A stretch of DNA of 21,214 nucleotides from Deltaproteobacteria bacterium RBG_13_61_14 (GCA_001797815.1 MGQK01000118.1:494-21707); one strand, 5' to 3'; numbered from the stretch's first letter, positions 3,821 to 20,370 are shown. Numbers and translations: made by a program. Notes: generated by a model not told the origin, from the sequence alone.

Positions 3821-4157
3821 TGATTGGGCCGGGAGCGCGGATAGGGGTGCGGGTGGGGGCACCCGCAACACAACTTTCGGAAAGTATTGCAAAATTCTCG
3901 AAGAAATTTTCTCTCAAGCTCGTTTTGAGTGCGATCTCGAAATGGGTGCCAAATTCCGCCCTCATAACGACCCGTCAACTGTCCGGATCTTCCTTACCAG
4001 GACCACATTCTTCCTTATCCAGACGCCTTCCGCCCTTACCCTGACACGATTCGCACTTACCAGGACACGATTCTTCCTTACTACGACATGGACGGTTTCG
4101 CCGCTTCTCGGCGAAAAGTGCACAGTGCACAGTCCACAGTGGACAGTCATTCCGTGA
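3756..4157 (+). CDS. Possible 133-aa protein with heptapeptide-repeat tail (copy 1)
   Basis: The ORF starts MKSEIGKTIMLLTWRFVMAF, close to the start of a second ORF at 10229 (MRSEIKRLFEMLTWRFLKLF). The two align without gaps for 21 codons, and several differences are synonymous or conservative. The C-terminal part contains five 7-residue units (RIFLTRT, TFFLIQT, PSALTLT, RFALTRT, RFFLTTT) encoded by 21-bp tandem repeats. GAAGGGTGAAAG just before the ATG can act as a ribosome site. I do not recognise a family. The ORF lies in repeat DNA and may be non-coding. The evidence for coding is the conserved frame in two copies and the in-frame repeat, which is suggestive only. Confidence 0.35.
   Translation: MKSEIGKTIMLLTWRFVMAFLIDWAGSADRGAGGGTRNTTFGKYCKILEEIFSQARFECDLEMGAKFRPHNDPSTVRIFLTRTTFFLIQTPSALTLTRFALTRTRFFLTTTWTVSPLLGEKCTVHSPQWTVIP
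3989..4093. repeat. 21-bp tandem repeat, five units
   Basis: Five degenerate 21-bp units run head to tail without spacers. They begin CTTCCTTACC, CTTCCTTATC, CGCCCTTACC, CGCACTTACC and CTTCCTTACT at 3989, 4010, 4031, 4052 and 4073. The units are contiguous, so this is a minisatellite and not a CRISPR. An 8-bp hairpin (TTTCGCCG/CGGCGAAA, 4096-4116) follows directly. Confidence 0.85.
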
Positions 4158-6064: not shown

Positions 6065-7299
6065 CAATTTCGGCCGCCCCCGCCGGCTCCACTCTCTCCT
6101 ACCTCAAAGCCCGGCCAGTCTGCCCGACCTGCGGCCCGACCGAGCCGCCGGGCATTGACCTGATCACTTATATGCTCGATCCCACCACCGCGCCCGGCAT
6201 TACCATCTCTTATCCGCCAGAAAACACGACTTTTAACCTGGCCCGGGTGGCCGGTTCGGTCACTCCTTCGCCGGACAAAGTCACCCTCTACGTCAATGAC
6301 ATTTTGATTGAAGAGAAAGCCATCCTTCCCGGCGACACCCTCTTCGAGTTCAATCGCGTCCCCTTTGAGCAAGGCCCCAACGAGATCATGGTCATGGCCA
6401 TCTGGGGAACCTCGGACATTGCGGTGGAAAAAATCACGGCGAAGTTTGACAGCATACCTCCTTCTATTGTGGATACCGAACCGCAAAACTTTGTCATTCT
6501 TCGCTATTTATATCATTGCCTTCCCAGTCCTCCGGGTCCACCGGTTGGAACCTGCCCGGTGCCGCTGAGCGGGGATGATTCCATGCCGGCCAACCAGAGC
6601 CTTAGCATCACTTTTTCTGAACCTCTTAACCCTTCTACTATCCCCGCTCTGTCCGACTCATCCACAGATCCGGTTTTCTTGCAAGGATTGGTTTATGCTT
6701 CAACCTGTGAGATCGGAAGTATTATCCCAAGCTCTCTTACCCTCAGCGCCGATGAACAAAATCTCATTGTCAATCCAACTGATGTTTTAACCAGTGGCAC
6801 TTATGAACTGGTCTTTATGCCCCAAAGCAGTCCGCCACTCGGGAATCGAATCACTGATCATGCTGGTAATGTATTGGATTATTGGCCCTGGCGTATAAGA
6901 GGCGGATGCTATAAGCTGAATTTCAGAGTATCTGCCGCAAGCGATACCTCTCCTCCTTCGGTAAGCTGGACTCTTCCTGACAATGGCGCCTCGAATGTTT
7001 CTGAAGATCGGGGTCAGAACTTTACTTTAAACTTAAGGGGAAAGGGGACAGGATTCAGTTCAAAGTTCACAGAGGAATGTCTGTGCCCCTCCTGCCTCAA
7101 GCCTCGCTTCGTGCTCTTCGTGTGCTTCGTGGAGAAATCTTCCCGTTTACGTTCACGGCAACGTTCACGTTTTGATGGAATTGAATCTGCGCAATCTGAC
7201 TTCGGCGAGCTCTCCTCGGCAGGCTCGGAGCCTGAGCCAATCGAAGGCCCCTCGACCAACTCGGGGCATGAGCTTGCCGAATGCAGTCGAGCCGCGTAA
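6061..7299 (+). pseudogene. Remnant of a secreted Ig-like (Big_5) repeat protein
   Basis: The frame is open from 6016, after a TAA, to the stop at 7297-7299. It has no credible start or signal peptide, and the ATG at 6172 falls inside a domain. The protein-like part runs from about 6061 (TLTISAAPAGSTLSYLKARP) through an Ig-like module (SYPPENTTFNLARVAGSVTP to FEQGPNEIMVMAI) and a Big_5-type module (LSITFSEPLNPS, then NRITDHAGNVLDYWP). It ends in the opening strand of another (SPPSVSWTLPDNGASNVSED). Such modules occur in large surface or secreted proteins, often with RHS or similar repeats. From about 7036 the frame runs into intergenic repeats, so the last ~85 codons are not original. Both ends are lost, and I infer a decayed fragment. 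Confidence 0.7.
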
Positions 7300-7341: not shown

Positions 7342-9912
7342 TCAGAACGCCCAGTTGGGTTGGTGCAGGTAGTTCTGCTCCTCGATGGAGTAGCCGATAT
7401 CAAAGGTGGCCATCACCGCCGGGGGCACGTGGATGCGGATGACGAAGCCGTAGCCCCAGTGCCAGGACTGCTGCCAACTCCTAAGCTCGAAGATATCATG
7501 CATCACCACCCCGGTGTCCACGAACAGCGCCCAGTCCACGAACTTCCAGTAGGCCCAGCGGTATTCGAGGTTGATCCAGGCGGCGTCGTAGTCGCGGAAG
7601 CGGTCGCCGAAAAAGCCGCGGAGATTGGAGCCTCCGCCCAGGGGGGTGAGGTCGTAAAAGGGGACGTCGAGGATCTGCCGGCCGCGGAAATCAATTTCCG
7701 GGGAGATCAGGTGGGTGAAGACGACCCGGCCGGCCAGGGAGCGGCGCTTGTTGGGACCGAAGAACTTGGTCAGGAAGGTCCTGCGGTCGCTGAACCAGTG
7801 GTCCATGGGCAGGTTATTGAGCCAGCGGGGCTCCAGGTATCCGCGCAGGTCCAATACGAGGCGGGTGAAGTTGTAGTTGGCGCCGATCATGGGATGGACG
7901 AACTCGACGGTGAACTTCTGGTAATTGCCCCGGTGGGGGACCTGGTAATCGTCGCGGAAATCCCGGTAAAATTCGAGCTGGATCCGGTTGTCATAACCGC
8001 CCTCCCGGCCATAGGTAGGCGGGCCCCAGCGCTCTTCCATGATCTCTTCGCTTAAGCCGAAATGGTCTTCCAATCGGTCGTAAATGATGCCCCCGGAACG
8101 GGCCTGTTGTCCGGGCTTGAGGGTCATGAATCGGCAGCTAAGCTCGGTGTCCACCCCGTAATGGTCCAGGAAGTGCTTGCGGAAGGTCACCGAGCCTTCG
8201 TATTTCACCCACCAATACAGGGAGCGGTGGTCCTTGGGCGCAGCGTTGCCCTGGCCGAAGAAACTTTCGGAAGGGAACTCCTGCAGCTCCAGGAAAAAAC
8301 GGAGGTCTTCCAGGTATCCGGTGCCCGGGATCTTGGAGATGTCGAACAGGTACCACTGGAAGTTGCGGTCGGTCCGGATGAACATGAGGTTGAGCATGGT
8401 CCCGGTGCCCAACAGGTCGGCGTCCACGTAACTGGGGCCCCCGCCGTAGCCGATGTTGTAGGGGTCCAGCCAGAAATTGGGCAGCACCGCCCGGGTCACC
8501 TTCTGTTCCTCCGGCTTCTCCTCGGCCGTGGGGACGGGCTGGTCCTTTTCCTTGCGCTGGTCCGGCGCCGGCGGAGCCCCGGGAAGCTCGGCCAAGAGTT
8601 CCCGGTTGTCGGTGAACACTGTCAGGGGGCGCCGAAAGGAATCCATGTAGGGCTTTTCCATTCCCGGCTGATACGGCTCCGGCCGGAACCAGAAGACCAG
8701 CCGCAAAGGCTTGGGCTTGTGCCCGATCTTTTCCAGGTGCCGGACCGCGAACCCGAACTTGCCCATCATCCCTGATTCCTCTTCCGGCGGATCGGGCTTG
8801 TTGCTTTGATCGTTGAAGTAGAGGTCTTTGTGCAGCGGGAGGTCGCCCGGCAGGGCCAGGTAAGAAAAAATGGTCCCGGCTTTGCCGGTCACCGCGACCC
8901 ACTCGGTGGGACCGTAATTCATCCCCAGCTCCTGCGGCTCCAGGGTGCCGTCCACCGGGACCCCTTTCGGGTTCTTCTCGCTGAGGAAGGTCATCCGGTC
9001 CGCCTCCGAGCTCAGGTCCAGGGCCAGGGTGTAAGTGGATAGGTTGACCGGTCCGAGATAGATCGGCGGCCGGGTATTCAGCAGGTATTCCACGTGGTCC
9101 GAGTAAAAGGTGATGGTGTTGATCACCCGGATCTGCGCGTTAAACCAGCTCTCCAGGACCGACTCGGTCTCCACGATGATCCGGATCGGCCCGACCTTGA
9201 TCCCCCGGCCGTAATAATGGAAGTCCTCTTCGCTGAGGCTGTAGGCGGAAAGTCCCCGGGCCACGGCCACGTCCAGCCGCGTCTTGAAGCGGTCCACCAG
9301 GTCCGGGCCGGGTCCGCCGGGCCCCAGGATCTGGAGCTGGTCGAAATTCACCGGGTTTCCTTCCGGGAAGCCCAGGAGGTAACTCTTGCCGGTGTAAAAC
9401 CGGAAGCTATCATCGGCGCGCACGTAGCTTTCCGGCGCATTAGCCGGCGGCCGATCGAACGCGCAAAGGTAGGCGAAACCCTGGTTTCCCGTTTCGGGTT
9501 CTTGCACCCGCAGCTCGGCACAGACCCGGGCCTCGGCCGGCATCTGACCCGGCGCTGCCGGCGGACCCAGGTCCCGGCTCATGAACGCGAGCTGGTCATT
9601 GTAATCAAAGGCAGGGTCGTAGTCCGTCCGCACCCGCTTGCCGGCGTTGGTCGCATAGGCCAGATGCTCCCGACGCCGGGTCCAGCTCTGATAGACCGAC
9701 ACTTCCATCCGCTCGTCAATTTGAAAAGGGATCACGCCGAGCCGGCCCTCGGTCACAGCCAGGAGCCGGAGAGCCTCGACCGGCTGGGTCAAGACCGCGG
9801 GCAGGTTCTGCGCCTCGACCACGATCGGACTGTTGACTGAGAAGGTTCCTTGCGCCCCGGCCGGCCCGGCCGCCAGCCAGGTCGCGACCAGGAGCCACCA
9901 CCATTTCTGCAT
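7342..9912 (-). CDS. Outer-membrane protein with Omp85/BamA-like C-terminal barrel
   Basis: An 856-residue protein. Residues 1-20 are a Sec signal peptide (WWWLLVATWLAAGPAGA). Residues ~21-435 form a beta-rich domain that I do not recognise and that shows no obvious POTRA repeats. A charged Pro/Glu linker (PAPDQRKEKDQPVPTAEEKP) follows near residue 450. The C-terminal ~375 residues have amphipathic strands, GGGSNLRGFFGDRF with the LRGF motif (764-767) equivalent to VRGF/Y of Omp85 loop 6, and NLEYRW. The protein ends in Phe, as most barrel proteins recognised by BAM do. GGAAGGGG lies upstream of the ATG. It probably sits in the outer membrane. Export, assembly or lipid handling are all possible, and the N-terminal domain decides which. 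Confidence 0.8.
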   Translation of the reverse strand: MQKWWWLLVATWLAAGPAGAQGTFSVNSPIVVEAQNLPAVLTQPVEALRLLAVTEGRLGVIPFQIDERMEVSVYQSWTRRREHLAYATNAGKRVRTDYDPAFDYNDQLAFMSRDLGPPAAPGQMPAEARVCAELRVQEPETGNQGFAYLCAFDRPPANAPESYVRADDSFRFYTGKSYLLGFPEGNPVNFDQLQILGPGGPGPDLVDRFKTRLDVAVARGLSAYSLSEEDFHYYGRGIKVGPIRIIVETESVLESWFNAQIRVINTITFYSDHVEYLLNTRPPIYLGPVNLSTYTLALDLSSEADRMTFLSEKNPKGVPVDGTLEPQELGMNYGPTEWVAVTGKAGTIFSYLALPGDLPLHKDLYFNDQSNKPDPPEEESGMMGKFGFAVRHLEKIGHKPKPLRLVFWFRPEPYQPGMEKPYMDSFRRPLTVFTDNRELLAELPGAPPAPDQRKEKDQPVPTAEEKPEEQKVTRAVLPNFWLDPYNIGYGGGPSYVDADLLGTGTMLNLMFIRTDRNFQWYLFDISKIPGTGYLEDLRFFLELQEFPSESFFGQGNAAPKDHRSLYWWVKYEGSVTFRKHFLDHYGVDTELSCRFMTLKPGQQARSGGIIYDRLEDHFGLSEEIMEERWGPPTYGREGGYDNRIQLEFYRDFRDDYQVPHRGNYQKFTVEFVHPMIGANYNFTRLVLDLRGYLEPRWLNNLPMDHWFSDRRTFLTKFFGPNKRRSLAGRVVFTHLISPEIDFRGRQILDVPFYDLTPLGGGSNLRGFFGDRFRDYDAAWINLEYRWAYWKFVDWALFVDTGVVMHDIFELRSWQQSWHWGYGFVIRIHVPPAVMATFDIGYSIEEQNYLHQPNWAF

Positions 9913-10169
9913 TTTGCCCCTTCCCGCGCGCGCTCGCCTGTGGCGCTGAAGGCCCGACTATTTTACGCAGGTTACTTGGCGCTTGGCAAGAAAAATTTGT
10001 GGTTCTTCAACCTTTTACGTGGATTTCGCACTTGGCCGCTAACCCTGAAAATCTTCAAGGGGGACAGGCATTCCTGTTTTGCGTTTCGCCCCACGCTTCG
10101 CGGGGTCATCCTCTTTCTTCTTTTTTTTCCCCAATATACGACATACGATATACGACATACCTCTTCAAT
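9913..10169. repeat. Intergenic region with CATACGA heptamers and dispersed repeat
   Basis: It lies upstream of the Omp85-like gene. Four heptamers TATACGA, CATACGA, TATACGA and CATACCT occupy 10135-10162. The segment 10114-10168 (pyrimidine run, CATACGA heptamers, CTCTTCAA) is repeated at 10403-10460. No gene is seen. Confidence 0.75.
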
Positions 10170-10293: not shown

Positions 10294-10600
10294 CCAATGC
10301 CCCCAAGATGCACCCCCATTTCCGGCCCCGGCCCTTCCAAATCCCCAGATACTCCTCTCCGACTACCCGGGAACCAACTTAACCTGGCAAAATTTCTATT
10401 GGTTTCTTCTTCTTCTCTTTCCCGACATACTACATACGACATACGATATACCCTCTTCAAACGTCCCCCCATCCTGCACGCCAACCACCCCATACTGCGC
10501 AGCAGCCACCCCATCCTGCCAGCGAACCACCCCATCCTGCGCGGCAACCACCCCAGGTTTTCCGGGTGGGGACCATCTCTCCCGGTCTATCAACCGCTAA
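10229..10600 (+). CDS. Possible 123-aa protein with heptapeptide-repeat tail (copy 2)
   Basis: The ORF starts MRSEIKRLFEMLTWRFLKLF, matching the first 21 residues of the ORF at 3756 in a gap-free alignment. A hydrophobic stretch (NFYWFLLLLFPDIL) lies mid-protein. The tail has four 7-residue units: PPSCTPT, TPYCAAA, TPSCQRT and TPSCAAT, with a conserved cysteine at position 4. The ORF at 3756 has leucine in that position in its own units. AAGG abuts the ATG, so a ribosome site is present but very close. The middle of the ORF includes a dispersed repeat (10403-10460), which weakens the coding case. No family is recognised. Confidence 0.35.
   Translation: MRSEIKRLFEMLTWRFLKLFLPQCPQDAPPFPAPALPNPQILLSDYPGTNLTWQNFYWFLLLLFPDILHTTYDIPSSNVPPSCTPTTPYCAAATPSCQRTTPSCAATTPGFPGGDHLSRSINR
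10403..10460. repeat. Second copy of the CATACGA dispersed repeat
   Basis: A pyrimidine-rich run is followed by heptamers CATACTA, CATACGA, CATACGA and TATACCC (10426-10453) and CTCTTCAA. It parallels 10114-10168. Confidence 0.75.
10468..10551. repeat. 21-bp tandem repeat, four units
   Basis: Four contiguous 21-bp units start at 10468, 10489, 10510 and 10531. Each begins CCCATCCTGC or CCCATACTGC and ends CAC. The array continues into CCCAGG. There are no spacers, so it is not a CRISPR. Like the array at 3989, it lies downstream of a copy of the shared leader element. Confidence 0.9.
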
Positions 10601-10721: not shown

Positions 10722-12257
10722 TCAAACGCCGGATCCTAGTCCTCTAATTCTTTGAAAATATTGACTTGCTTCAATCTCAGAGTAAGGTACATTTGTGCTT
10801 TGTGAGTGGTTAACAATACAGTGGCCGGTAGGAAGATTCTGAATTTGCTCAGATATTTGAGACCTACTTGAACCCTTACAAGATGTAAGTATTTGAGCTT
10901 CTACCCAGGACACACGACAATGAAAAACAAAAAAGGTACCAATAAGTTCTCTTATATCTTGGCTAGCACAAAGAGATTTGGGCGTTTGCGTGGCAAGCAT
11001 TACAATAAAGCCAGAATCTGCAGACTCACGCAAAAGTTTTTCTAGAAAATAATTCTTTACATGTAGATAGTTATGAGCTTCATCAATTACAATGCATGAT
11101 CTAATTGCCCGTGTGCCAGAATCGGCGTCGATTTCAGCACGTGGCAAGGTAGAACATTCACTAGCAAAGCTTGCCAGAATAAGCGATGCCACAATAGCTC
11201 TATGTTTCTCAGGGACTCCCTCAAGTTTTACGATTGCGCTAGAACTACTCAAAAAGCGTCTTGAAGTTGAAGTCGGGTCTGCTCTTTCAAATAATGAAAG
11301 GTTCACAAAAGAATCAAGCATTTCTGTAAGAGTATCTCGTGCATCGCCATATTCGCTTAAAACATTTTCGCGAACTTCATCAAAGTCTGGATAGGGAACT
11401 GATTTTCCTCGACGCGCTTCATAAGATTGAATGATAGCGTTGCGAAGATAACTTTTTTGTTTATTTCGTATACTTCTATCGAATGCTGCCATGAGGTCAC
11501 ATTTTTCCTGAGCAGATTTTCTGATTTCGCGTTCACTATAATCAGATAAGATGAATGGATTTATCGGCAAAGGCGCCTTATCTGGGTTAAGAATCTCAAT
11601 ACCAAGATTTTCTGCAAATTCATCTAAGGAATCATCTTTACGATAAGCTAAAAATATGAAGTTAGAACGACCGCTTGTTTTTTCTCTAAGTTGTGCAAGA
11701 ATGTCAAGAAGAAGTTGAGTCTTGCCTGAGCGCGTCTCTCCTAAAATAGCAGTATGAGGATTTGCTCTCGAATCATTTAATTTCCAATAAAAAGGCTGCT
11801 CCTTTCGACCTTCCAAATGGCCGACCAGAATCTCCATGCTCTCACTCGCATTAACTGAAGCAATAAAGGGAGATGATAAAAATGAAGTCAATCTAGATTC
11901 AAGTTCTACAAAAGCCATATTTATATCTCCATTATTTTTATAAAGTTTGTGTATAGTCTGAGCACCTTCATTAATATGATTGCATATTAATTCTAGGCAT
12001 TTATCTGTATTGTAATCTATTTGATATAATGATGCGACAAAAGCTGAAAGAATACCTTCTGGGTCAATAAGAGACATATGTAGTCGAAAGCCCCCTGCTT
12101 TATCATGAATAACGTCAGAAAAGTCACGTCTGCCAGATTCCTTTAATGAAACTACAGCAGCAATTCTTGCCAAATCCTTTTTTGTAATGCCTGATAGTTC
12201 AGAAAGTTCACGAAGTATTGAGTTGGTCTCTCCGCTAGTAAGCATTTCTCTAGGCAT
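10722..12257 (-). CDS. DndE fused to a HerA/FtsK-like ATPase
   Basis: A 511-residue protein. Residues ~5-115 match DndE, the small DNA-binding partner of phosphorothioation systems: TNSILRELSELSGITKKDLA, RIAAVVSLKESG and HINEG (94-98, HINRG in the family). Residues ~140-505 form a P-loop ATPase: Walker A GETRSGKT (173-180), Walker B IVIDEAH (Asp392, Glu393) and LATQTPKSL (421-429), the latter typical of HerA/FtsK/VirB4 motors. AGGAGG lies seven bases before the ATG, overlapping the end of the dndD-like gene 11 bases upstream. From memory, DndE-ATPase fusions exist in some Dnd islands, but here no DndB or DndC is nearby. The last residues (GLGSGV) and the TGA appear to come from the GC-rich flank, so the native C-terminus may be lost. 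Confidence 0.85.
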   Translation of the reverse strand: MPREMLTSGETNSILRELSELSGITKKDLARIAAVVSLKESGRRDFSDVIHDKAGGFRLHMSLIDPEGILSAFVASLYQIDYNTDKCLELICNHINEGAQTIHKLYKNNGDINMAFVELESRLTSFLSSPFIASVNASESMEILVGHLEGRKEQPFYWKLNDSRANPHTAILGETRSGKTQLLLDILAQLREKTSGRSNFIFLAYRKDDSLDEFAENLGIEILNPDKAPLPINPFILSDYSEREIRKSAQEKCDLMAAFDRSIRNKQKSYLRNAIIQSYEARRGKSVPYPDFDEVRENVLSEYGDARDTLTEMLDSFVNLSLFERADPTSTSRRFLSSSSAIVKLEGVPEKHRAIVASLILASFASECSTLPRAEIDADSGTRAIRSCIVIDEAHNYLHVKNYFLEKLLRESADSGFIVMLATQTPKSLCASQDIRELIGTFFVFHCRVSWVEAQILTSCKGSSRSQISEQIQNLPTGHCIVNHSQSTNVPYSEIEASQYFQRIRGLGSGV

Positions 12258-12268
12258 AACTTGTCCTC

Positions 12269-14371
12269 CTAAAAATATTGGTTCTCACGTACATATGTAG
12301 AATGAAGGCTAGCATCAAATTCAAGTAAACATTTTTGAATGATGTGTTTTTCCAGAGTATCAATATTTTGTGAACCTATTTCATCGGGTTGAGAAAGAAG
12401 TATTACTTGCCTTGCGGCCCTAGGAAAAAACTTAGTCAAGACACATTGTCTGTTTTTATCATCTAGACCAGAAAGAGGAGTATCAATCACTAGAGGAATA
12501 CTACTTGGAGCAGATTTACATAAACCACCAAGCAGCGCAAGAGCGTAAAGCTGTTTTATACCTCTGGAAAGCCTTTGAGCTACTATTGGTGATCCCTGTA
12601 AATAAATTGTTGGAAAATAGGTTTCGGGGTCGAAAGCAATCTTGCCTTCACGATCATCATAAACTGCACTACTAAGAAGCAATTTGAATATTTTTGTAGT
12701 TTCATCTTCCAAAGATTTCAATCTCTCTTTTCTAAGCATATCAACATATGAATTAAGAACTTTAATTGATGTTCTTGCTAGAGACAATATCTTTTGTTCC
12801 ACTGATTTCTGACCTTTGATATCTTCTAACCTATCTAATTCTTCATGTAGCTTATTTATATCCTCAATTTTCTTCTCCTTTTCTCTTGTTAGATGATCCA
12901 ATTTATCACTATTTGCCTGAAATTCCGCACCATTATTTCTTATTTTAACGATAAGAATATCCTGGTTCCTCTTTGCTTCAGGAGATAGCTTTAATTCTTC
13001 GATTTCATTATCAATAAGCTCAATTTCTTGATCCAGAGCTATTTTTTGATTAAAAAGACCGGCATAACTAAGAGAATTTGCTTCGATCTTTTGGATAGTA
13101 TTTGATATAGATCTAGCTGTAGAAATAGATAAAGGAGAGCTGAGACCATCTTCAATTTCAGGAAATTCCTCGCTGATAATCTCATTCAAATAATTTGAAA
13201 TTCTTTGAGAGATCACTTTAGGTTCAGGGAATTGAGATTTCACATTACAAAGATAGCAGGTTCCAGATTGTTTATGATATTCTTCAAGCCGACTGCTCAA
13301 TTTCTCAAAATATTTACGGGCTAAAATTGCTGCATCCTTCTGAGAAAGATTATCACTCTGAGTAAGAACTCTTTTGAGTTCCTTATATAGAAGTTGATAT
13401 GGATAAGTATCTGTCAAATGAGATTTTAATTCTTTCTCAATTTGGTTGCGTTTAGCCTGAAGCTGTTCTCTTCTCTTTATTCTTTCAATTTCGAGCCGTT
13501 GCGATTTCGGACCTCCATATCTAAGGAAAAGCTCATTATATTGATTTTCGAGATCATTTTTCTCTTTTTGTATCCTATCAAGTTCAGATTTAGTATTTTC
13601 GATATCTATAGCCAATTCTTCCTTTTCACCTTCTGTTTTCTTAAGTTGACCACGGGCGCTCATTATTTCTCCGTCAAGCTTTTCAATTGATTCTGAGCGA
13701 ATTTCCGTTACAATATATTTCTGCAAATGATCCTTCAGATTAACATAAAGTTGTATTCCAAGTAAACGCTCAATGGCTTGTGGAATGTCTTTGCTTGATC
13801 TCTCTGGTGCTGCAAAATGTTCCACTTTTTCACCATCAAAAAAGAAAAATTGAGCAGTTTCCCAAGGGATTATTGAGAGCTCAACCCATTGCTTTATCTC
13901 TTCACTATTCCAATCCATTAATTTTGTTCCATTCTCGTAGATTGACAGTGTTTCTTCTAGATTTGGCAAAATTGAATTATCTGATCGTCTAATACGTCTT
14001 GGTTTCCAAATACGTTCAATGGTTATCTCGTCATTTTCATCCTCATAAGTAACAGCAAGTCTTATATCATTATTGTCGCGCTCTCTAATATGACGTGCCA
14101 GCCCATCTCTATCATCTTTATATTTGTATGCTCCGTTTACATAGTCTATCATATCAGCGGGTTGTTGTACCTTGATTGATCCATCACGACTTTCAAATCG
14201 GCCATAAAGGCATAGATGAATAGCACCAAGAAACGAGGTTTTTCCAGCGCCATTCCTCCCTCCAATTAAGTAAATGTTACGATAAGCATTTTCGTCTGGA
14301 GGTGCGAAATTGAATTCCGTTTTCTTAGAATAGCATCGAAAGTTTTCGATCTCCAGCTTTCGAAGAATCAT
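12269..14371 (-). CDS. dndD: DndD-like SMC/RecN-type ATPase
   Basis: A 700-residue protein with an ABC-type ATPase head split by coiled coils. It starts MILRKLEIENFRCYSKKTEF, with Walker A GRNGAGKT (38-45) and FFFFDGEKVEHFA (175-187), a stretch typical of DndD. Coiled coil occupies about 225-315 and 445-525, separated by a CYLC zinc-hook (Cys372, Cys375). The signature LSRGIKQLYALAL begins at 601, and Walker B with D-loop is IPLVIDTPLSGLD (625-637). DndD supplies ATPase activity to the DndCDE complex that places sulfur in the DNA backbone. The start overlaps the upstream stop as TAATG, so translation is coupled. Base use is strongly AT-rich compared with flanking genes, indicating transfer. 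Another SMC-like defence ATPase is possible, but the DndE partner supports DndD. Confidence 0.88.
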   Translation of the reverse strand: MILRKLEIENFRCYSKKTEFNFAPPDENAYRNIYLIGGRNGAGKTSFLGAIHLCLYGRFESRDGSIKVQQPADMIDYVNGAYKYKDDRDGLARHIRERDNNDIRLAVTYEDENDEITIERIWKPRRIRRSDNSILPNLEETLSIYENGTKLMDWNSEEIKQWVELSIIPWETAQFFFFDGEKVEHFAAPERSSKDIPQAIERLLGIQLYVNLKDHLQKYIVTEIRSESIEKLDGEIMSARGQLKKTEGEKEELAIDIENTKSELDRIQKEKNDLENQYNELFLRYGGPKSQRLEIERIKRREQLQAKRNQIEKELKSHLTDTYPYQLLYKELKRVLTQSDNLSQKDAAILARKYFEKLSSRLEEYHKQSGTCYLCNVKSQFPEPKVISQRISNYLNEIISEEFPEIEDGLSSPLSISTARSISNTIQKIEANSLSYAGLFNQKIALDQEIELIDNEIEELKLSPEAKRNQDILIVKIRNNGAEFQANSDKLDHLTREKEKKIEDINKLHEELDRLEDIKGQKSVEQKILSLARTSIKVLNSYVDMLRKERLKSLEDETTKIFKLLLSSAVYDDREGKIAFDPETYFPTIYLQGSPIVAQRLSRGIKQLYALALLGGLCKSAPSSIPLVIDTPLSGLDDKNRQCVLTKFFPRAARQVILLSQPDEIGSQNIDTLEKHIIQKCLLEFDASLHSTYVRENQYF

Positions 14372-14550
14372 TAACTTTCCTTTCTAAGGGTAATTTCTTC
14401 TTCGAGGATGAGTTTGAGGTCCCTCTTAAGGCCACGTTTACGGATCATTTCCTTTTTGTTATTTTCGCATTGAAGAAGCTTTTCAAGACAATCTGGAGTG
14501 AGATTATTTTCTATGCAAATCTTTCTCAGGCGATCATTAATGAATTGCAT
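14371..14550 (-). CDS. 59-aa protein at the head of the dnd-like cassette
   Basis: The protein reads MQFINDRLRKICIENNLTPD at its start and ends LILEEEITLRKES. It is highly charged, predicted helical and lacks a signal peptide. The start is ATG 14550 with AGGAGG eight bases upstream; a TTG one codon earlier is less likely. Its TAA shares one base with the dndD ATG (TAATG), so the two are translationally coupled. Small proteins in this position next to DndD are known in DNA-modification islands, from memory. The role is unproven; an adaptor for DndD or the DndE-ATPase is an inference. Confidence 0.7.
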   Translation of the reverse strand: MQFINDRLRKICIENNLTPDCLEKLLQCENNKKEMIRKRGLKRDLKLILEEEITLRKES

Positions 14551-14859
14551 CAACTAAACCTCCTAGTCGGGGACTCCTTGCCAAACTTAATCTTATTGAG
14601 ATCAAAGTTCAAACGGGGCAGGGAAAGATGGGGAGCCTTGCCTTGGGAGCGGCCGGCCTGGCCTGCCTGGGGGACTGGGCCTTGCATGGTGGCAGTATGG
14701 CATAGGCCGAAAAATTTGTCAAGAAAAAATTGAGCTTGATGACAGACACGGATTCTCTGTTCCTCTGCGCCTCTGACTCTGCGCAATCTGCGAAATCTGC
14801 GGATCGCTCTTTTTTTAGCGGTTGACAGACCAGAATGTCTGTCCCACCGGAGGAAGGAA
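14551..14859. other. Leader of the dnd-like cassette and repeat-rich spacer
   Basis: Bases up to about 14610 are AT-rich like the cassette. The rest is GC-rich intergenic text. A minus-strand ORF from ATG 14687 (MQGPVPQAGQAGRSQGKAPH at its start) ends in a TGA that overlaps the ATG of the 59-aa gene (TGATG). Coding is doubtful. At 14755-14810 CTCTGCG/AATCTGCG short repeats occur. At 14824-14843 GACAGAC/GTCTGTC forms a 7-bp hairpin just downstream of batE, without a U-run. No other gene is seen. Confidence 0.6.
14694..14722 (-). promoter_or_regulatory. Candidate promoter of the dnd-like cassette
   Basis: On the minus strand a perfect TTGACA (14722-14717), a 17-base spacer and CATACT (14699-14694) point towards the 59-aa gene. 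The predicted transcription start (near 14687) coincides with an ATG that opens a 45-codon leader ORF. Confidence 0.55.
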
Positions 14860-15624
14860 TCAGATGATCTCGAAGGTCCCGGCCTGGATCCAGCCCATCA
14901 GCCCGCCCGGCACCCGCACCTCGCAATAGCCGGACTCGCACTGCTTGACGGCGATTTCCATGCCCTCGAACAGCTCGAACAGCTCCGCGTTCTGCAGGCC
15001 GGGGCCGGAGCGGGCCGGGGTGCGCTCGGCCTGGACCACCGCCCGCGAGTTCCAGACCTCCTGCTTGAGCTTGGCCAGGGTGAGCGGGGCGAAGAGGACC
15101 AGGAGCAGAAGCCCGGCACCCAGGGTCGCGCTCGCGGCGATGCGAAGCGGGGCCGGGCGAAAAAAGATCCGGCCGGCGAGACCGAGGCCGAGGAGGAACC
15201 ATCCGGCGGAAAGGAGGGTGAGGAGTTCGTTCAGGCTGAAGCTGTCCCGCGCCTGGTCCCAGGTCTGGAGCCAGAAGCCCCGCTCGACCTGGGGAAGCTT
15301 GCCCTTGATCTGCACCCGGGCGAAGCGAAGGTTGTGGGCCAGGTCCGGGTCGCGCGGGGCCAGCCGCAGCGCGCGCTCGTAAGCCGCGACCGCCGGCCCG
15401 AGCCGGCCGGCCTTGAGGCAAGCGTTGCCCAGGTTGTAATAGAGGTCCGCCGAAGCTGCCCCCTGGCCCAGCGCGGCGCGGTAGTCCTCGACGGCTCCGG
15501 CAAAATCTCCTTTGCCATAGGCGGCATTGCCCGCATTGTAAAGCGCGGCCGGTGATTCGGCGCCGGCCTCGGGGAACGCGCAAAACAGCGCCGCGGCCCC
15601 AAGCAATAGTGCAACCCTTCTCAT
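14860..15624 (-). CDS. batE: BatE-like TPR and SH3-domain membrane protein
   Basis: A 254-residue protein. The ATG at 15624 is chosen because its bases overlap the batD stop as ATGA and it opens a signal peptide (MRRVALLLGAAALFCAFPEA). Two TPR units occupy ~26-95 (ALYNAGNAAYGKGDFAGAVE; LYYNLGNACLKAGRLGPAVA). Two membrane segments follow at ~133-155 and ~162-185, and a bacterial SH3-type domain at ~193-251 ends GYCEVRVPGGLMGWIQAG. This domain order is typical of BatE, the last gene of Bat operons. The TPRs probably sit in the periplasm and bind Bat partners, and the SH3 domain may bind peptides or peptidoglycan. Confidence 0.85.
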   Translation of the reverse strand: MRRVALLLGAAALFCAFPEAGAESPAALYNAGNAAYGKGDFAGAVEDYRAALGQGAASADLYYNLGNACLKAGRLGPAVAAYERALRLAPRDPDLAHNLRFARVQIKGKLPQVERGFWLQTWDQARDSFSLNELLTLLSAGWFLLGLGLAGRIFFRPAPLRIAASATLGAGLLLLVLFAPLTLAKLKQEVWNSRAVVQAERTPARSGPGLQNAELFELFEGMEIAVKQCESGYCEVRVPGGLMGWIQAGTFEII

Positions 15625-17408
15625 GGCCGGCTCTTCTCCAGCGCGGCGATCACCTCTCCGGCCCGGCGCAAGGCTTGGGCGGAAGCGCTGGCTTCGGTCG
15701 GGGCCGCGCCGAAGCGGGCGCGGTCGCAAACCCCGAGCAGATCCAGGAACTTTAGCCGGATCGAGTCCTCCACGCTTTTCTCGCGGAACACTTCCTCGAT
15801 CCGCTCGGAGGTGAGCCCGGCCGCGGCCAGGTTGAAGCGATCGGCGAAATACCGGGTGAGGGCGCGGGAGAGCTCGGCGTAAAACGGCGTCGCCTCGCCC
15901 GCCTTTTGCAGGCGCTGGGCTTGCTTCAGGCGCTTCTTGGACTGGGAAAAGGCCCGGCGCATGCGGGCGTAGCTTAGGTCCGTGCTCAGGCGCTCCTGCC
16001 GGATGCGCCAGACCAAAGCCAGCGCCGGGAGCAGCGCCGGCAGGATTTGCAGGAGCAGGAACGCCGGCGAGCGGTGGAGCCGGCGCTCGCGGGGAAGCGC
16101 GGTCCGGTCCGGCTTGAGGTAGCGGATATCCTCGCTCAAGAGTTTCACCTCTTCCCGGGTCAGGTCGCCGCGCAGCGACGGGCCGGCCGCAGCCGGGGCC
16201 GGCCGCGCCGGGGTGACGGTCAAGGTGTAGCTCGGGCTCTCAGCCGAGCGGTAAGTCCTGCTCGTCGGATCAAAGTAATCGAAGCGCGCGGGCGGGATCA
16301 CGAAGCTGCCGGCTTCCCGCGGGACCATCAGGCAGGAAAACTCCTTGCGGGTCTGGAAGCGGCCGGCCACGTTGCCGGCGGTGCGGTCCACCTCCGGCGG
16401 ATAGACCTCGAACGTGGCCGGCAGCGGCAACACCGGCTCGGTGACAAAGTCCGCGTAGCCGTCGCCGGTAACCGTGAAGATCAGCCGCGCCGAATCGTGC
16501 GCCGGAACCTCGGTCTTTTCCAGCCGGCCGGCGATGGTGAACTGGCCCACGGCGCCGCTGAAGCCCCCCGGCTTGCCTTCCTCGGGCAGGGGCAGCACCT
16601 TGAGCGCGATCGGCCGGGAGCTGACCGTGCGGCCTTCGGTCAGGAGCTGGCCCCAGAAGTCGCGCCGGCCGCCCGCGGATTCGTATCGGATCTCCAGGGG
16701 CGGGATGGTCATGTCCCCGCTCTGCAAGGGAAAGAAAGCGGTGCTTTTCAAGAACGAGACGTGATAAAGCGCGCCGCCGTAATTCTCCATCTTCTGGTCC
16801 AGGCGCCGGGCCTGGTCCAGGTCTTGCGCGGCAAAACCCCGATAGGAGGGCGGATTGCCCCAGCTCAGGTTATAGATATCGCGGCGATAATAAATGGTCC
16901 AGGTCACCACCACCTGCTCGCCCACAAAGACCTCGGCCCGGTCCACCTTCGCCTCCAGGTAAGGGTCTTCGGCCGGCACCCAGCCTTCCCGCTCCTCCCC
17001 GGCCGCAGCCGGCGCCGGCTCCTGGATCTCCACCGCGATCGGGTCGGTCTGGTAAAAGTTGGCCCCCGCATAGATCACCAGCGCCGGGATCTCGGCGCGG
17101 CCGGCTTTCAGCGCCTCGAGCTGGATGACCAGGGTCAGGGATTCGGAAGATTGCATGCGGCCGTTGACGATGGTGATCTGCGAGGAGTGCTGGGGGGTGG
17201 ATTGCCGCAGCACCTGGAAATAGGGGGCGAGGTCCGGGAGGCGAAGGGAAGAGGCGTCAATCCCGCTGCCCTGGACGCGCACGGTGAGGACGGTCCGCTC
17301 GCCCACGTAAAGCCGGGTCCGATCCAACTCGGCGCTGAACTGGACCTGGGCCCCGGCGGCCCCGGCCCCGATCAGCCAGAAGAGAAAAATGGCCGCGGCC
17401 CGCTTCAC
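15621..17408 (-). CDS. batD: BatD, membrane-anchored periplasmic beta protein
   Basis: A 595-residue protein starting at GTG 17408, which overlaps the batC stop as GTGA. Residues 1-20 are a signal peptide ending AGA. Three immunoglobulin-like beta domains follow. The first (~22-130) has QFSAELDRTRLYVGERTVLT. The second (~150-275) opens with YLEAKVDRAEVFVGEQVVVT, the repeated pattern that typifies BatD. A third, around 285-400, opens with FTIAGRLEKTEVPAHDSARL. One membrane helix lies at ~447-468, followed by a cytoplasmic helical tail (~470-595) with RRAFSQSKKRLKQAQRLQK. BatD is thought to work with the vWA proteins BatA and BatB; a chaperone- or envelope stress-related role is known only in outline. 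Confidence 0.9.
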   Translation of the reverse strand: MKRAAAIFLFWLIGAGAAGAQVQFSAELDRTRLYVGERTVLTVRVQGSGIDASSLRLPDLAPYFQVLRQSTPQHSSQITIVNGRMQSSESLTLVIQLEALKAGRAEIPALVIYAGANFYQTDPIAVEIQEPAPAAAGEEREGWVPAEDPYLEAKVDRAEVFVGEQVVVTWTIYYRRDIYNLSWGNPPSYRGFAAQDLDQARRLDQKMENYGGALYHVSFLKSTAFFPLQSGDMTIPPLEIRYESAGGRRDFWGQLLTEGRTVSSRPIALKVLPLPEEGKPGGFSGAVGQFTIAGRLEKTEVPAHDSARLIFTVTGDGYADFVTEPVLPLPATFEVYPPEVDRTAGNVAGRFQTRKEFSCLMVPREAGSFVIPPARFDYFDPTSRTYRSAESPSYTLTVTPARPAPAAAGPSLRGDLTREEVKLLSEDIRYLKPDRTALPRERRLHRSPAFLLLQILPALLPALALVWRIRQERLSTDLSYARMRRAFSQSKKRLKQAQRLQKAGEATPFYAELSRALTRYFADRFNLAAAGLTSERIEEVFREKSVEDSIRLKFLDLLGVCDRARFGAAPTEASASAQALRRAGEVIAALEKSRP

Positions 17409-18190
17409 CAGTCCCTGCCTCCCGGCCGGCCTTCGGCGTTGATCTGAAAGCGCTCCTTCTGCTGCTCCTCTTCCTGCGCCTGCATCGCGTCCAGCAGCCG
17501 CTCCGCTTCTTCCTGGCTCAACTCCTCCGGCTTCTTCTGCTCGCCCGCGGCCGGCTTCGGCTCCTCCCCGGCCGTGCCGCCCGCTTGCGGCTGCGGCTGC
17601 GCCTGGGCCTGCTCTTGCTCCTGCTTCTCCGCCGTGTTCCCGGCTTGCGGCTGGGGCTGAGGCTGCGGTTGCTGCTGCTGCTGTTTCACGTCCAAGTGCC
17701 GGCGCACCACCTCCAGATTGTATTTCGCGTCCTCATCATCCGGGGTCAGCTCCAGCGTCTTCCGGTAACTCGCCACCGCCTGCTTCAAAAGCTCCAGCGC
17801 CTGGTTCTGGTCCCGGGTCTGCATCGCTTCCTTGAAATAAGTGTTCCCGATATTGTAGGCCGCCTGCGCCTGCAACTCCATCGTCTCGCTCGCCTGCGCC
17901 TGCTCGAACTCCTTGCGCGCCTCCCCGTATTTCTTCTGCTGATAGAGCGCGTCGCCCAGGTTAAGGTGCAGCCGAAAAGCGTCCTCGCTCTTCGCCTCCA
18001 CCCCGGAACGCGCCTCCACGTAAAGGCTCTGCGCCTGATCGAACTGGCCCGCCTGGTAAGCCCGGTTGCCTTCCCGGGTCTTCTCCACCACCGGGCCGCC
18101 CAACCCTAAGAGAGAGAGCCCTCCCAGCACCAGGATACAATTTTGGATTTTAGATTTTGGATTTTGGATTTTGGATTTTAGATTAAGCAT
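17405..18190 (-). CDS. batC: BatC-like TPR protein with repeat-encoded N-terminus
   Basis: A 261-residue protein. Its ATG (18190) lies three bases after the batB stop. Residues 4-17 (LKSKIQNPKSKIQN) are encoded by six 7-bp repeats. A hydrophobic segment (18-32, CILVLGGLSLLGLGG) acts as signal or anchor. TPR units span ~38-165 (EGNRAYQAGQFDQAQSLYVE; LHLNLGDALYQQKKYGEARK; AAYNIGNTYFKEAM; AVASYRKTLELTPDDEDAKY). The C-terminal third is a low-complexity Gln/Pro/Glu region (QQQQPQPQPQPQ) ending with the acidic helix EELSQEEAERLLDAMQAQEE. This is the usual BatC layout. The TPRs probably bind BatA, BatB or BatD on the periplasmic side. Adding or losing one heptamer would shift the frame, so this start is unusual. 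Confidence 0.85.
   Translation of the reverse strand: MLNLKSKIQNPKSKIQNCILVLGGLSLLGLGGPVVEKTREGNRAYQAGQFDQAQSLYVEARSGVEAKSEDAFRLHLNLGDALYQQKKYGEARKEFEQAQASETMELQAQAAYNIGNTYFKEAMQTRDQNQALELLKQAVASYRKTLELTPDDEDAKYNLEVVRRHLDVKQQQQQPQPQPQPQAGNTAEKQEQEQAQAQPQPQAGGTAGEEPKPAAGEQKKPEELSQEEAERLLDAMQAQEEEQQKERFQINAEGRPGGRDW
18141..18182. repeat. Six TTTTGGA/TTTTAGA heptamers inside the 5' end of batC
   Basis: TTTTGGA, TTTTAGA, TTTTGGA, TTTTGGA, TTTTGGA and TTTTAGA run without interruption for 42 bp. The total keeps the frame because it is divisible by three. This is the same family as 3597-3652. Confidence 0.95.
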
Positions 18191-18193
18191 GGC

Positions 18194-19204
18194 TTATCGC
18201 TTTTTCCTCTCCGGCATCGCGGCTTCGGCAAAAAGCAAGAGCACCGCGACCAGGAGCGGCCACTGGAACCGGTCTTGGTATTGCACGTGATACTGTTCCT
18301 CAAACGTCTTCTTTTCCATCCCGGAAATCGCTTCGTAAATCTTGGTCAACTCCATCTCCTCGGGCGTGGCATGGTAATACTTGCCGCCGGCCGCCAGCGC
18401 GATCTTCCGCAAACTCTCCTCATCCAGCTTGCTCATCACCGGCTGGCCGCTCGGATCGCGCTTGTAGGCCACCTCCCCTTGCTCGTTCGTGAGCGGGATC
18501 GGCTCGCCCCGGCCGGACCCGATGCCCACCGTGTAAATCACCACCCCCTGCTCCGCGGCCTTTTCCGCGGCGGCCACCGGGTCCTGCTCCTTGCCTTCCC
18601 GCAGGTTCTCGCCGTCGGTGAGCAGGACCAGAGCTTTGAACTTCTTGCTCTTGGGGTCAAAATTCGCGGCTCCGGTGCGGATGGCGTCGGCAATGGCGGT
18701 GCCCGGCTCCGGGATCACGCCGGGGTTGAGGGTCTGCAGGAACATCTTGGCCGCCTGGTAGTCGAGGGTGAGCGGGCAAAGGGTAAAGCTGGTTCCGGCA
18801 AAAGCGACGATGGCCACCCGGTCGCCTTTGAGCAGGTCCAGGAGCTTAGAGAGCTCGTGCTTGGCTTTCTCCAGCCGGCTGGGCTTGATGTCCTGGGCGA
18901 GCATGGACAGCGACACGTCCAGCACCACCACCAGGTCCACGCCCTCGCGTTTGATCGGGGTCAGGCTCGCGCCCCACTGCGGCCGGGCCAGCGCCAGCGC
19001 CAGGAAGAAGACGGCCAGGACGAAAAAGACTTGCTTGAGCCGCCGGCGGGGAGGATGCACCGCGGAGCCGATGCGCTCGAGCAGGTCCGGGTTCCCGAAC
19101 GATCGGATCAGGCCGGCCCGGCGCCGGCCGGACCAGACGAATCCTCCGATCAGCGCCGGAAGCAGGAGCCAGAGATAGAGAAAGTTGGGATTCGCAAACT
19201 TCAT
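18194..19204 (-). CDS. batB: BatB, von Willebrand factor A membrane protein
   Basis: A 336-residue protein. Membrane helices lie at ~7-25, ~57-73 and ~312-328 flanking a vWA domain (~88-300). The MIDAS metal site is complete: DVSLS (Asp96, Ser98, Ser100), Thr169 in GTAIADAI and Asp197 in LLTDGEN. ALARPQWG before the domain is typical of the BatA/BatB family. vWA domains bind partner proteins through a divalent metal; here the partners are probably BatC, BatD and BatE. The ATG at 19204 has only a weak purine-rich site upstream (ACGGAA), because the spacer from batA is filled by a repeat element. The stop is three bases before the batC start. Confidence 0.9.
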   Translation of the reverse strand: MKFANPNFLYLWLLLPALIGGFVWSGRRRAGLIRSFGNPDLLERIGSAVHPPRRRLKQVFFVLAVFFLALALARPQWGASLTPIKREGVDLVVVLDVSLSMLAQDIKPSRLEKAKHELSKLLDLLKGDRVAIVAFAGTSFTLCPLTLDYQAAKMFLQTLNPGVIPEPGTAIADAIRTGAANFDPKSKKFKALVLLTDGENLREGKEQDPVAAAEKAAEQGVVIYTVGIGSGRGEPIPLTNEQGEVAYKRDPSGQPVMSKLDEESLRKIALAAGGKYYHATPEEMELTKIYEAISGMEKKTFEEQYHVQYQDRFQWPLLVAVLLLFAEAAMPERKKR

Positions 19205-19210
19205 TTCCGT

Positions 19211-19377
19211 ATGTAGCCCACCCTTCGGCTCGGCGAAGGGTGGGTTCGCCGAAACTCCCTTAGTGCTTCGATTCGCAAATACGATGACATATCATTTCTG
19301 CTTGCTCGATGAGTTTGCTCACTCAGCACTAAGTCCTGAGTAAATAAGTTCGTAATCGAACTTATGAATCGAAGGAC
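19211..19377. repeat. Structured repeat element between batA and batB
   Basis: Several inverted repeats are packed here. They are CCCACCCTTCG/CGAAGGGTGGG with a 6-base loop (19217-19244), CTTAGTGCT/AGCACTAAG (19259-19267 and 19325-19333), and ATAAGTTCG/CGAACTTAT with loop TAAT (19344-19365), enclosed by AAGTCCT/AGGACTT. The element reaches into the stop codon of batA and nearly to the start of batB, so it would be transcribed in the operon mRNA. It looks like a mobile palindromic repeat. Confidence 0.75.
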
Positions 19378-20370
19378 TTATGGAATCCTCCGAAAGCGCG
19401 TGTGGGCCAAAACCATTTCCACCAGGAGCAGGCCCATCGCCGCCAGCAGCCAGGGAGAAAAATTCTCCGAATACCGATAATACTGGGTCACGTCCACCTG
19501 GGACTTTTCCAACTGGTCAATCTCCGAGAAGGTCTTTTCCAGGCCTTTGCGGTCGGTGGCCCGGAAGTAGCGGCCGGCGGTGGTCTTGGCGATCTCCTGG
19601 AGCTGGCTCTCGTCCACCCGGCCCGCGGCCGGCACCAGGATCCGGCCGAAGAAGAAGTCATCCACCGCCTGCATCATGCCGCCGGGGTTGACCACGCCCA
19701 CCGTGTAAACCTTGATCCCCATGGCCTTGGCCAGCTCCGCGCCCTGGAGCGGGTCAATGCCCCGGTTGTTCTCGCCGTCGGTCACCAGGATGATCACCTT
19801 GCTCTTGGCCTGGCTCTCGCGCAGCCGGTTGACCGCGGTAGCCAGGGCGTTCCCGATGGCGGTGCCGTCGTGCTCCGGCCGGGTAAAGCTGACCTTGTCC
19901 GCCAGGTCGAGCAGGATGGTGTAGTCCACCGTCAGCGGGCACTGGGTGAAGGCCAGGGCCGAAAACACCACCAGCCCGATCCGGTCGCTCTTGCGGCCCA
20001 GGATGAACTGCCGGGTCACCAGCTTGGCCACGTTCAGCCGGTTCTCCGGCTCGAAGTCCTGCTGCTGCATGGAAGTGGAGACATCGAGCGCGATCATGAT
20101 GTCAATGCCTTCGCTCGAGACCTCTTCCTCACGGGTGCCGCTCTGGGGCCGGGCCAGGGCCGCGACCAGGAGCAGGAGCGCCAGCGCCCGCAGCCCGATC
20201 AGCGAATGCCGCAGGGGCAGGCTGGGCGAGGGCCGGAGCGACCGGAGCAGCCCCAGGTCCGAGAATTTAAGCCGCGGCCGGCCCCGGGCTTCCAGCCGGC
20301 GGTAGATCCAGATCAGGAGCGGGAGCAGCGAGAGCCCGAGCAAAAACCAGATATCGTGGAAGCGGAACAT
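19378..20370 (-). CDS. batA: BatA, von Willebrand factor A membrane protein
   Basis: A 330-residue protein with the same plan as the downstream vWA gene: membrane helices at ~6-24, ~56-74 and ~306-324 and a vWA domain between ~88 and ~285. The MIDAS site is intact: DVSTS (Asp96, Ser98, Ser100), Thr170 in DGTAIGNAL and Asp198 in LVTDGEN. The domain also contains FFFGRILVPAAGRVDESQLQ, a region found in BatA-type proteins. It starts three bases after the upstream BatD-like gene stops, so the genes are co-transcribed. The TAA lies inside the repeat element that separates it from batB. The assignment of A versus B rests on order and similarity of layout. Confidence 0.9.
   Translation of the reverse strand: MFRFHDIWFLLGLSLLPLLIWIYRRLEARGRPRLKFSDLGLLRSLRPSPSLPLRHSLIGLRALALLLLVAALARPQSGTREEEVSSEGIDIMIALDVSTSMQQQDFEPENRLNVAKLVTRQFILGRKSDRIGLVVFSALAFTQCPLTVDYTILLDLADKVSFTRPEHDGTAIGNALATAVNRLRESQAKSKVIILVTDGENNRGIDPLQGAELAKAMGIKVYTVGVVNPGGMMQAVDDFFFGRILVPAAGRVDESQLQEIAKTTAGRYFRATDRKGLEKTFSEIDQLEKSQVDVTQYYRYSENFSPWLLAAMGLLLVEMVLAHTRFRRIP

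What the first reader, a model, noticed from the sequence alone, without database searches (positions are those of the whole stretch)
10722..14550. AT-rich cassette: 59-aa protein, DndD-like ATPase and a DndE-HerA fusion, with no dndB or dndC
Seen: a DndD-type SMC ATPase with CYLC zinc hook, and a DndE domain fused to a P-loop motor with intact Walker A and B, coupled by TAATG and an 11-base gap. Known: phosphorothioation needs DndC (PAPS-reductase-like) and a cysteine desulfurase, and DndE is normally a separate small protein. Inference: this is either the stranded half of an island or a system in which DndD plus a DndE-guided DNA motor acts as a restriction or defence effector without modification. 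Its base composition differs sharply from both flanks, so it was acquired.
Basis: partly seen in the sequence, partly recalled or inferred. Interest (0 to 1): 0.75.

Follow-up and report, generated by a model that had tools for sequence, protein, structure and literature searches.

The report
Modification-free Dnd motor cassette
A small, recently acquired three-gene cassette pairs a DNA-clamping ATPase with a DNA-pumping motor and a free-standing copy of the docking tail of a DNA-sulfur enzyme that is itself absent, so it is probably an anti-invader machine that works without marking its own DNA.

Summary
Window 10722-14550 (minus strand) is an AT-rich three-gene operon: a 59-aa protein (SP), DndD, and DndE fused to a HerA/DndH-type motor. 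Neither dndC nor DndH is found elsewhere in this 95%-complete genome; the single DndB-family hit is unlinked. The fusion beside DndD is already known (Rakesh 2024). Three points are new here. (1) SP is a stand-alone version of DndC's C-terminal segment 433-482, the part that docks DndC onto DndD. SP, or a DndC still carrying it, was found in 50 of 52 related loci. (2) Most relatives are not phosphorothioation systems: of 45 loci with enough upstream sequence, 30 sit beside an HsdM-like N6-adenine methylase (most with an HsdS-like gene), 2 beside DndC and 13 beside neither. (3) Methylase-less and DndC-less cores recur. One is a discrete AT-rich insertion bounded by a 666-bp direct repeat; another is a two-gene form in a 99%-complete genome. 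On the DndD tree the window groups with the methylase-linked branch. A 'stranded half of a Dnd island' is therefore unlikely. Best reading: a complete DNA-scanning and translocating defence core that plugs into different modification modules, or none. Its action without a modifier or nuclease is untested.

The parts
14371..14550 (-). SP, 59 aa: stand-alone homologue of the DndC C-terminal segment that docks on DndD (Pfam Sp-DndD-like)
   Evidence: PF20306 E 3.1e-5, 24.5 bits against cut-off 27.2; NCBIfam PRK06850 (DndC) residues 411-461 E 1.1e-4; PADLOC DndC 411-458 E 2e-4; alignment with E. coli DndC 433-482; SD AGGAGG, 8 nt, ATG
12269..14371 (-). DndD-clade coiled-coil ABC ATPase, 700 aa
   Evidence: TIGR03185 279 bits over cut-off 245.9; PADLOC DndD E 6.8e-93; AF2 model pLDDT 79, matches Rad50/SMC heads
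13247..13258 (-). CYLC hook of DndD, residues 372-375
   Evidence: only 1 of the 39 relatives aligned there has a CxxC (L059)
10722..12257 (-). DndE-HerA/DndH-type motor fusion, 511 aa
11946..12254 (-). DndE domain of the fusion (residues 2-104)
   Evidence: hhalign 98.5%, E 2.7e-15 against canonical DndE
10743..11843 (-). HerA/FtsK-type motor domain (residues 139-505), closest fold the DndH C-domain
   Evidence: 7es4 Z 41.3, 2.1 A over 353 residues; phmmer E 4.2e-13
11718..11741 (-). Walker A of the motor, GETRSGKT (173-180)
   Evidence: G173, G178, K179 invariant in the 48-row alignment
11079..11096 (-). Walker B of the motor, CIVIDE (388-393)
   Evidence: D392, E393 invariant in the 48-row alignment
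10584..10600 (+). left copy of a dispersed 17-nt repeat flanking the cassette (inverted relative to the right copy)
   Evidence: 11 genome copies with up to 2 mismatches, control 1
14815..14831 (+). right copy of the same repeat
14694..14722 (-). best promoter-like site ahead of the operon, TTGACA-17-CATACT
   Evidence: 10 of 12; the total number of sites in the region is at chance level

Best explanation
This is a complete, horizontally acquired three-gene DNA-scanning and translocation core of the Dnd superfamily, most likely an anti-invader defence cassette that works without phosphorothioation. Proposed mechanism: two DndD subunits form an ATP-driven, Rad50-like clamp on DNA. SP occupies the site on the DndD head that DndC's tail occupies in phosphorothioation systems, and acts as the clamp's adaptor or regulator. 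The DndE domain binds the DndD coiled coil and carries the HerA-type motor, which assembles into a ring and pumps or strips invading DNA held by the clamp. Shown: gene content, homologies, intact ATPase motifs, recent acquisition, recurrence of methylase-less and DndC-less cores, and conservation of SP with DndD. Inferred by transfer from E. coli DndCDE: the SP-DndD and DndE-DndD contacts. Inferred only: motor assembly, the defence role, and how invader DNA is stopped without an encoded nuclease.
For: An SP-only profile finds the C-terminal tail of every full-length DndC tested (E 8e-12 to 2e-5; best decoy 0.047) and does not find the short DndCs of L115 and L098, which have a separate SP gene instead. 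In E. coli, DndC 433-482 binds the DndD head and L458D/E462A/R471A breaks the contact (PMC12193691); the window SP has L, E and K there. SP or a DndC carrying it is present in 50 of 52 loci with the region available. Modules vary around the constant core: N6-methylase in 30 of 45, DndC in 2, neither in 13; L033 has a TdeIII restriction-modification pair. L059: reader-SP-DndD-fusion, GC 32% against 48-50%, bounded by a 666-bp direct repeat. G130 (4 contigs, 99% complete): DndD-fusion alone between housekeeping genes, no DndC, no DndH. DndD tree: window beside the methylase-linked branch with methylase-less L059, L015, L008 next to it, away from phosphorothioation clades (98/95; 86/92 with more rows).
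Against: No experiment. No close relative (at most 30% identity), so selection on the genes could not be measured. No nuclease and no reader protein in this cassette, whereas most relatives carry a reader. Long branches make the tree position unsure. The window genome is 95% complete in 132 contigs, so a missing partner cannot be fully excluded.
Confidence: 0.5

Rival explanations
1. The cassette works in trans with modification or restriction enzymes encoded elsewhere in this genome, for example the type I restriction-modification operon on contig 63 or another adenine methylase, so it is modification-dependent although not linked.
For: Most relatives are linked to N6-adenine methylases; this genome has a type I operon on C63 and other methylases; most relatives carry RAMA- or Mrr_N-type readers.
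Against: No orthologue of the linked methylase (best E 1.8e-10 against 0 with 62-74% identity where it is present); no reader in the cassette; seven of eight methylase-less genomes checked lack both that methylase orthologue and a DndC over cut-off.
Confidence: 0.22
2. The cassette is a remnant that has lost its modification module (methylase/HsdS and reader, or DndC) and is decaying or inactive.
For: Most relatives have an upstream module that is missing here; B. glumae has a short DndC directly upstream of the same SP-DndD-fusion order.
Against: All three frames and motifs are intact, with good ribosome sites and tight coupling; no methylase or DndC fragments beside it; the same reduced form occurs in unrelated lineages and as a discrete insertion.
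Confidence: 0.18
3. The core is part of DNA transfer or maintenance of a mobile element rather than defence.
For: The motor fold is shared with VirB4, TrwB and FtsK; clear signs of horizontal transfer.
Against: No integrase, relaxase or transfer genes in the cassette; the closest motor relative is DndH of a restriction system; relatives sit with restriction-modification genes.
Confidence: 0.07

Closest known systems
DndE-HerA/FtsK fusions next to a DndD-related ATPase (clade 3 of Rakesh, Aravind and Krishnan 2024, PMC10853773)
   Same: Same two-gene core and same fusion architecture; motor nearest to the DndH C-domain.
   Different: [quoted passage not shown] here no DndC exists, and the relatives examined are mostly tied to N6-adenine methylases. 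The tail-like SP is not discussed in that paper's text as far as I could search it; its reference 24 (the 2020 ABC-ATPase classification) was not available.
Split-DndC version on Burkholderia glumae plasmid psl2395s1p (dndC, small protein, dndD, 'DNA translocase FtsK') and on the Methylorubrum extorquens AM1 megaplasmid
   Same: SP-DndD-fusion in the same order.
   Different: A tail-less DndC is present directly upstream; the window has none.
Canonical DndCDE phosphorothioation complex
   Same: DndD, DndE and the DndD-docking segment of DndC are all represented.
   Different: No sulfurtransferase domain, no dndB in the locus, DndE fused to a motor.
DndFGH restriction module (DndH)
   Same: HerA/FtsK motor of the DndH C-domain type.
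   Different: No nuclease, target-recognition or methylase-like domains; no DndF or DndG in the cassette.
Methylase-linked cores found here (HSDR_N/N6-methylase, HsdS-like, RAMA or Mrr_N reader, SP, DndD, DndE-HerA)
   Same: Same core and same side of the DndD tree.
   Different: Window lacks methylase, HsdS and reader.

Membership tests
DndD | NCBIfam equivalog score | tested here: met
   279.1 bits against cut-off 245.85
DndD | no zinc hook at the coiled-coil apex (stated for DndD as against CxC ATPases, PMC10853773) | tested here: not met
   CYLC at 372-375; 7 canonical DndDs have none. So it is of the DndD clade by score and tree, with an unusual hook
DndE-HerA fusion, clade 3 | DndE and HerA/FtsK domain in one polypeptide next to a DndD-like ATPase gene | tested here: met
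Sp-DndD (PF20306) | Pfam gathering score | tested here: inconclusive
   24.5 bits, cut-off 27.2; position before DndD and the conserved pattern agree
DndABCDE phosphorothioation system | DndC sulfurtransferase | tested here: not met
   no significant match in the genome
DndABCDE phosphorothioation system | phosphorothioate in DNA | not testable with these tools
   needs iodine cleavage or mass spectrometry
DndABCDE phosphorothioation system | cysteine desulfurase DndA or IscS | not tested
   IscS is general and would not discriminate
DndFGH restriction system | DndH with nuclease and motor | tested here: not met
   only the C-terminal motor part matches, and only in this protein
Methylase-linked DndD/DndE-HerA cassette | adjacent HSDR_N/N6-methylase | tested here: not met
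   none beside the cassette; no orthologue in the genome
PbeABCD (CxC ATPase system) | HKD nuclease fused to SF2 helicase next to the ATPase-DndE pair | tested here: not met
   no such gene beside the cassette; neighbours are an Omp85-family protein and bat-type genes

The most novel reading that the evidence does not exclude
A minimal Dnd-derived defence that needs no DNA modification at all: the DndC docking tail has been freed to serve as a stand-alone regulator of the DndD clamp, and a DndE-tethered HerA motor removes or immobilises invader DNA mechanically, with no nuclease. The same core acts as an interchangeable engine for adenine methylation, phosphorothioation or type II restriction modules in other genomes.
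Probability: 0.35. Interest if true: 0.75.

Novelty: new variant of a known kind. Interest (0 to 1): 0.52.

Why it matters
It separates the scanning/motor part of Dnd systems from the modification chemistry and points to the piece that couples them, the DndC tail. If SP binds DndD as the tail does, the open question of what DndD and DndE do apart from sulfur chemistry becomes testable in a three-gene system. It also suggests that many loci that look like Dnd by DndD and DndE are really adenine-methylation or modification-free systems.

Tried and rejected
Split Dnd island with dndB/dndC elsewhere: no DndC in the genome; the DndB-family hit on C125 has native GC and ordinary neighbours, so it is not taken as part. 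Flanking inverted repeat as transposon ends: the 17-mer has about 11 scattered genome copies, so it is a dispersed intergenic repeat. L129's extra 87 N-terminal residues of DndD as a fused SP: not significant (E 0.97), so not claimed. The viral scan gave one weak partial match; phage and plasmid tblastn with the fusion gave only partial matches. No tRNA or Rfam family in the window. Structure search rows cover only residues 138-507 of the fusion, so they say nothing on the DndE part; that rests on the profile comparison. The 2020 ABC-ATPase paper cited for these fusions was not held. No paper with the term Sp-DndD was found.

Full report
WHAT IS THERE. On the minus strand of 10722-14550 lie three tightly coupled genes: SP (59 aa, 14371-14550), DndD (700 aa, 12269-14371) and a DndE-motor fusion (511 aa, 10722-12257). 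SP has a perfect AGGAGG eight bases before its ATG, SP and DndD overlap as TAATG, and the fusion has AGGAGG seven bases before its ATG after an 11-base gap. The three genes have 35-38% GC, and DndD and the fusion have 25% GC at third positions. The bat-type operon (14860-20370; named from its TPR and von Willebrand-type genes, not tested by profile) and the Omp85-family gene (7342-9912) on either side have 62-70% GC, 84-90% at third positions. Codon-usage distance is 0.55 between cassette and flanks against 0.10 among the flanking genes. The cassette is a recent arrival.

DndD scores above the NCBIfam cut-off (279 against 246 bits) and has intact Walker A, signature and Walker B motifs plus a CYLC hook. 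The fusion's N-terminus is DndE: weak alone, but the 48-member family profile aligns to canonical DndE with 98.5% probability and E 2.7e-15. A relative's fusion passes the Pfam DndE cut-off. The C-terminal 370 residues are a HerA/FtsK motor; the predicted model (pLDDT 87) matches the DndH C-domain 7es4 at Z 41.3, rmsd 2.1 over 353 residues.

THE SMALL PROTEIN. SP matches Pfam Sp-DndD just under its cut-off and, in NCBIfam and PADLOC, the last 50 or so residues of DndC. A profile built from 52 stand-alone SPs finds the C-terminal tail of all full-length DndCs tested (E 8e-12 to 2e-5; best decoy 0.047). In E. coli DndC this segment (433-482) is reported to bind the DndD head, and L458D/E462A/R471A breaks the complex (PMC12193691). 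I aligned the E. coli H240 DndC, whose residues at these numbers are L, E and R, with the SPs: the window SP has L, E and K, and L458 is kept in 55 of 56 rows. On plasmids of Burkholderia glumae and Methylorubrum extorquens, DndC is short, lacks the tail, and is followed by a separate SP gene, then DndD and the fusion. So SP is the DndD-docking segment of DndC, encoded apart. SP, or a DndC that still carries it, is present in 50 of 52 loci where the region upstream of DndD is available.

RELATIVES AND NEIGHBOURS. In a sample of 386 genomes, 5 carry the fusion, the window's own included. Of 45 loci with at least 5.5 kb upstream, 30 have an HSDR_N/N6-adenine methylase, most with an HsdS-like gene, 2 have DndC, 13 have neither. 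Many also carry one to three 'reader' proteins whose C-terminus is RAMA or Mrr_N. One locus without the common methylase has a TdeIII restriction-modification pair instead. The constant part is SP-DndD-fusion; the modification module varies or is absent.

Forms without methylase and DndC are not rare accidents. L059 has reader-SP-DndD-fusion as a 32% GC block between 48-50% GC flanks, bounded by a 666-bp direct repeat with one mismatch, so that unit moved as a whole, unless the assembly duplicated that stretch. G130, a 4-contig, 99%-complete genome, has only DndD and the fusion between ordinary genes, no DndC and no DndH. Of eight genomes with methylase-less cores (L008, L015, L031, L041, L049, L051, L054, L059), only that of L049 has a DndC over the cut-off elsewhere, and the other seven lack an orthologue of the linked methylase. 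On the DndD tree the window branches next to the methylase-linked group, with methylase-less L059, L015 and L008 as its neighbours, and apart from phosphorothioation clades (98/95; 86/92 after adding rows). Branches are long and this placement is not certain.

THIS GENOME. G000 is 4.74 Mb in 132 contigs, 95% complete. It has no DndC, no DndH, no orthologue of the linked methylase, and no second SP. It does have what reads as a type I restriction-modification operon on C63 and one DndB-family gene on C125 in a native-GC context. The two genomes of the same order that are held lack the fusion.

MECHANISM. By transfer from E. coli DndCDE, SP should sit on the DndD head where DndC's tail sits, and the DndE domain should bind the DndD coiled coil, thereby tethering the HerA motor to the clamp. 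The most likely action is ATP-driven clamping and pumping of invader DNA. No nuclease is encoded, so either mechanical eviction or silencing, or a host nuclease, must finish the job; this step is conjecture. Rivals are dependence on unlinked modification enzymes, and a remnant state.

KNOWN AND NEW. The fusion beside DndD is known as clade 3 of Rakesh et al. 2024, which assigns it to phosphorothioation systems, and Pfam and NCBI already name the small protein. I found no paper in the held library that identifies the small protein as DndC's docking tail, and the original 2020 description could not be read, so that point may already be known. The dominance of adenine-methylase neighbours and the modification-free cores are what the data here add. 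Verdict: new variant of a known kind.

Noticed in passing
window 13247-13258: CxxC hook in a DndD-clade ATPase; the literature says DndD lacks one, and of the relatives aligned only L059 shares it.
   Followed up: partly
window 14860-20370; L077:11189-19692: The window cassette and the L077 cassette (different phylum) both lie next to the 3' end of a bat-type operon; this could be a shared insertion point or coincidence.
   Followed up: no
window 10584-10600 and 14815-14831: 17-nt motif TTAGCGGTTGAYAGACC in inverted copies around the cassette, about 11 copies across the genome (control 1).
   Followed up: partly
L059:1137-1802 and 6238-6903: 666-bp direct repeat, one mismatch, exactly bounding a 4.4-kb AT-rich reader-SP-DndD-fusion cassette; the second copy begins right after the stop codon of the fusion gene.
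   Followed up: partly
L129:6624-10375: Two-gene form: DndD with an 87-residue N-terminal extension (not detectably SP) and the fusion, alone among ordinary genes in a near-complete genome.
   Followed up: partly
L051:3824-5750; L021; L024: Three tandem copies of the ~210-aa reader gene before DndD; the C-terminal domain is RAMA in some family members and Mrr_N in others, as if readers are swapped.
   Followed up: partly
L058:1047-2555: The N-terminal half of the fusion ORF is replaced in frame by what looks by eye like a serine recombinase; could be an insertion or a misassembly.
   Followed up: no
L066, L067, L070, L073, L077 (upstream of SP or DndC): A ~660-770-aa protein with RNA-polymerase alpha-CTD-like and sigma-4-like stretches precedes SP or DndC in one clade.
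   Followed up: partly
window 10467-10555, 10134-10160, 3988-4088: Short tandem repeats of 14 and 21 bases in the intergenic regions beside the cassette and further along the window.
   Followed up: no
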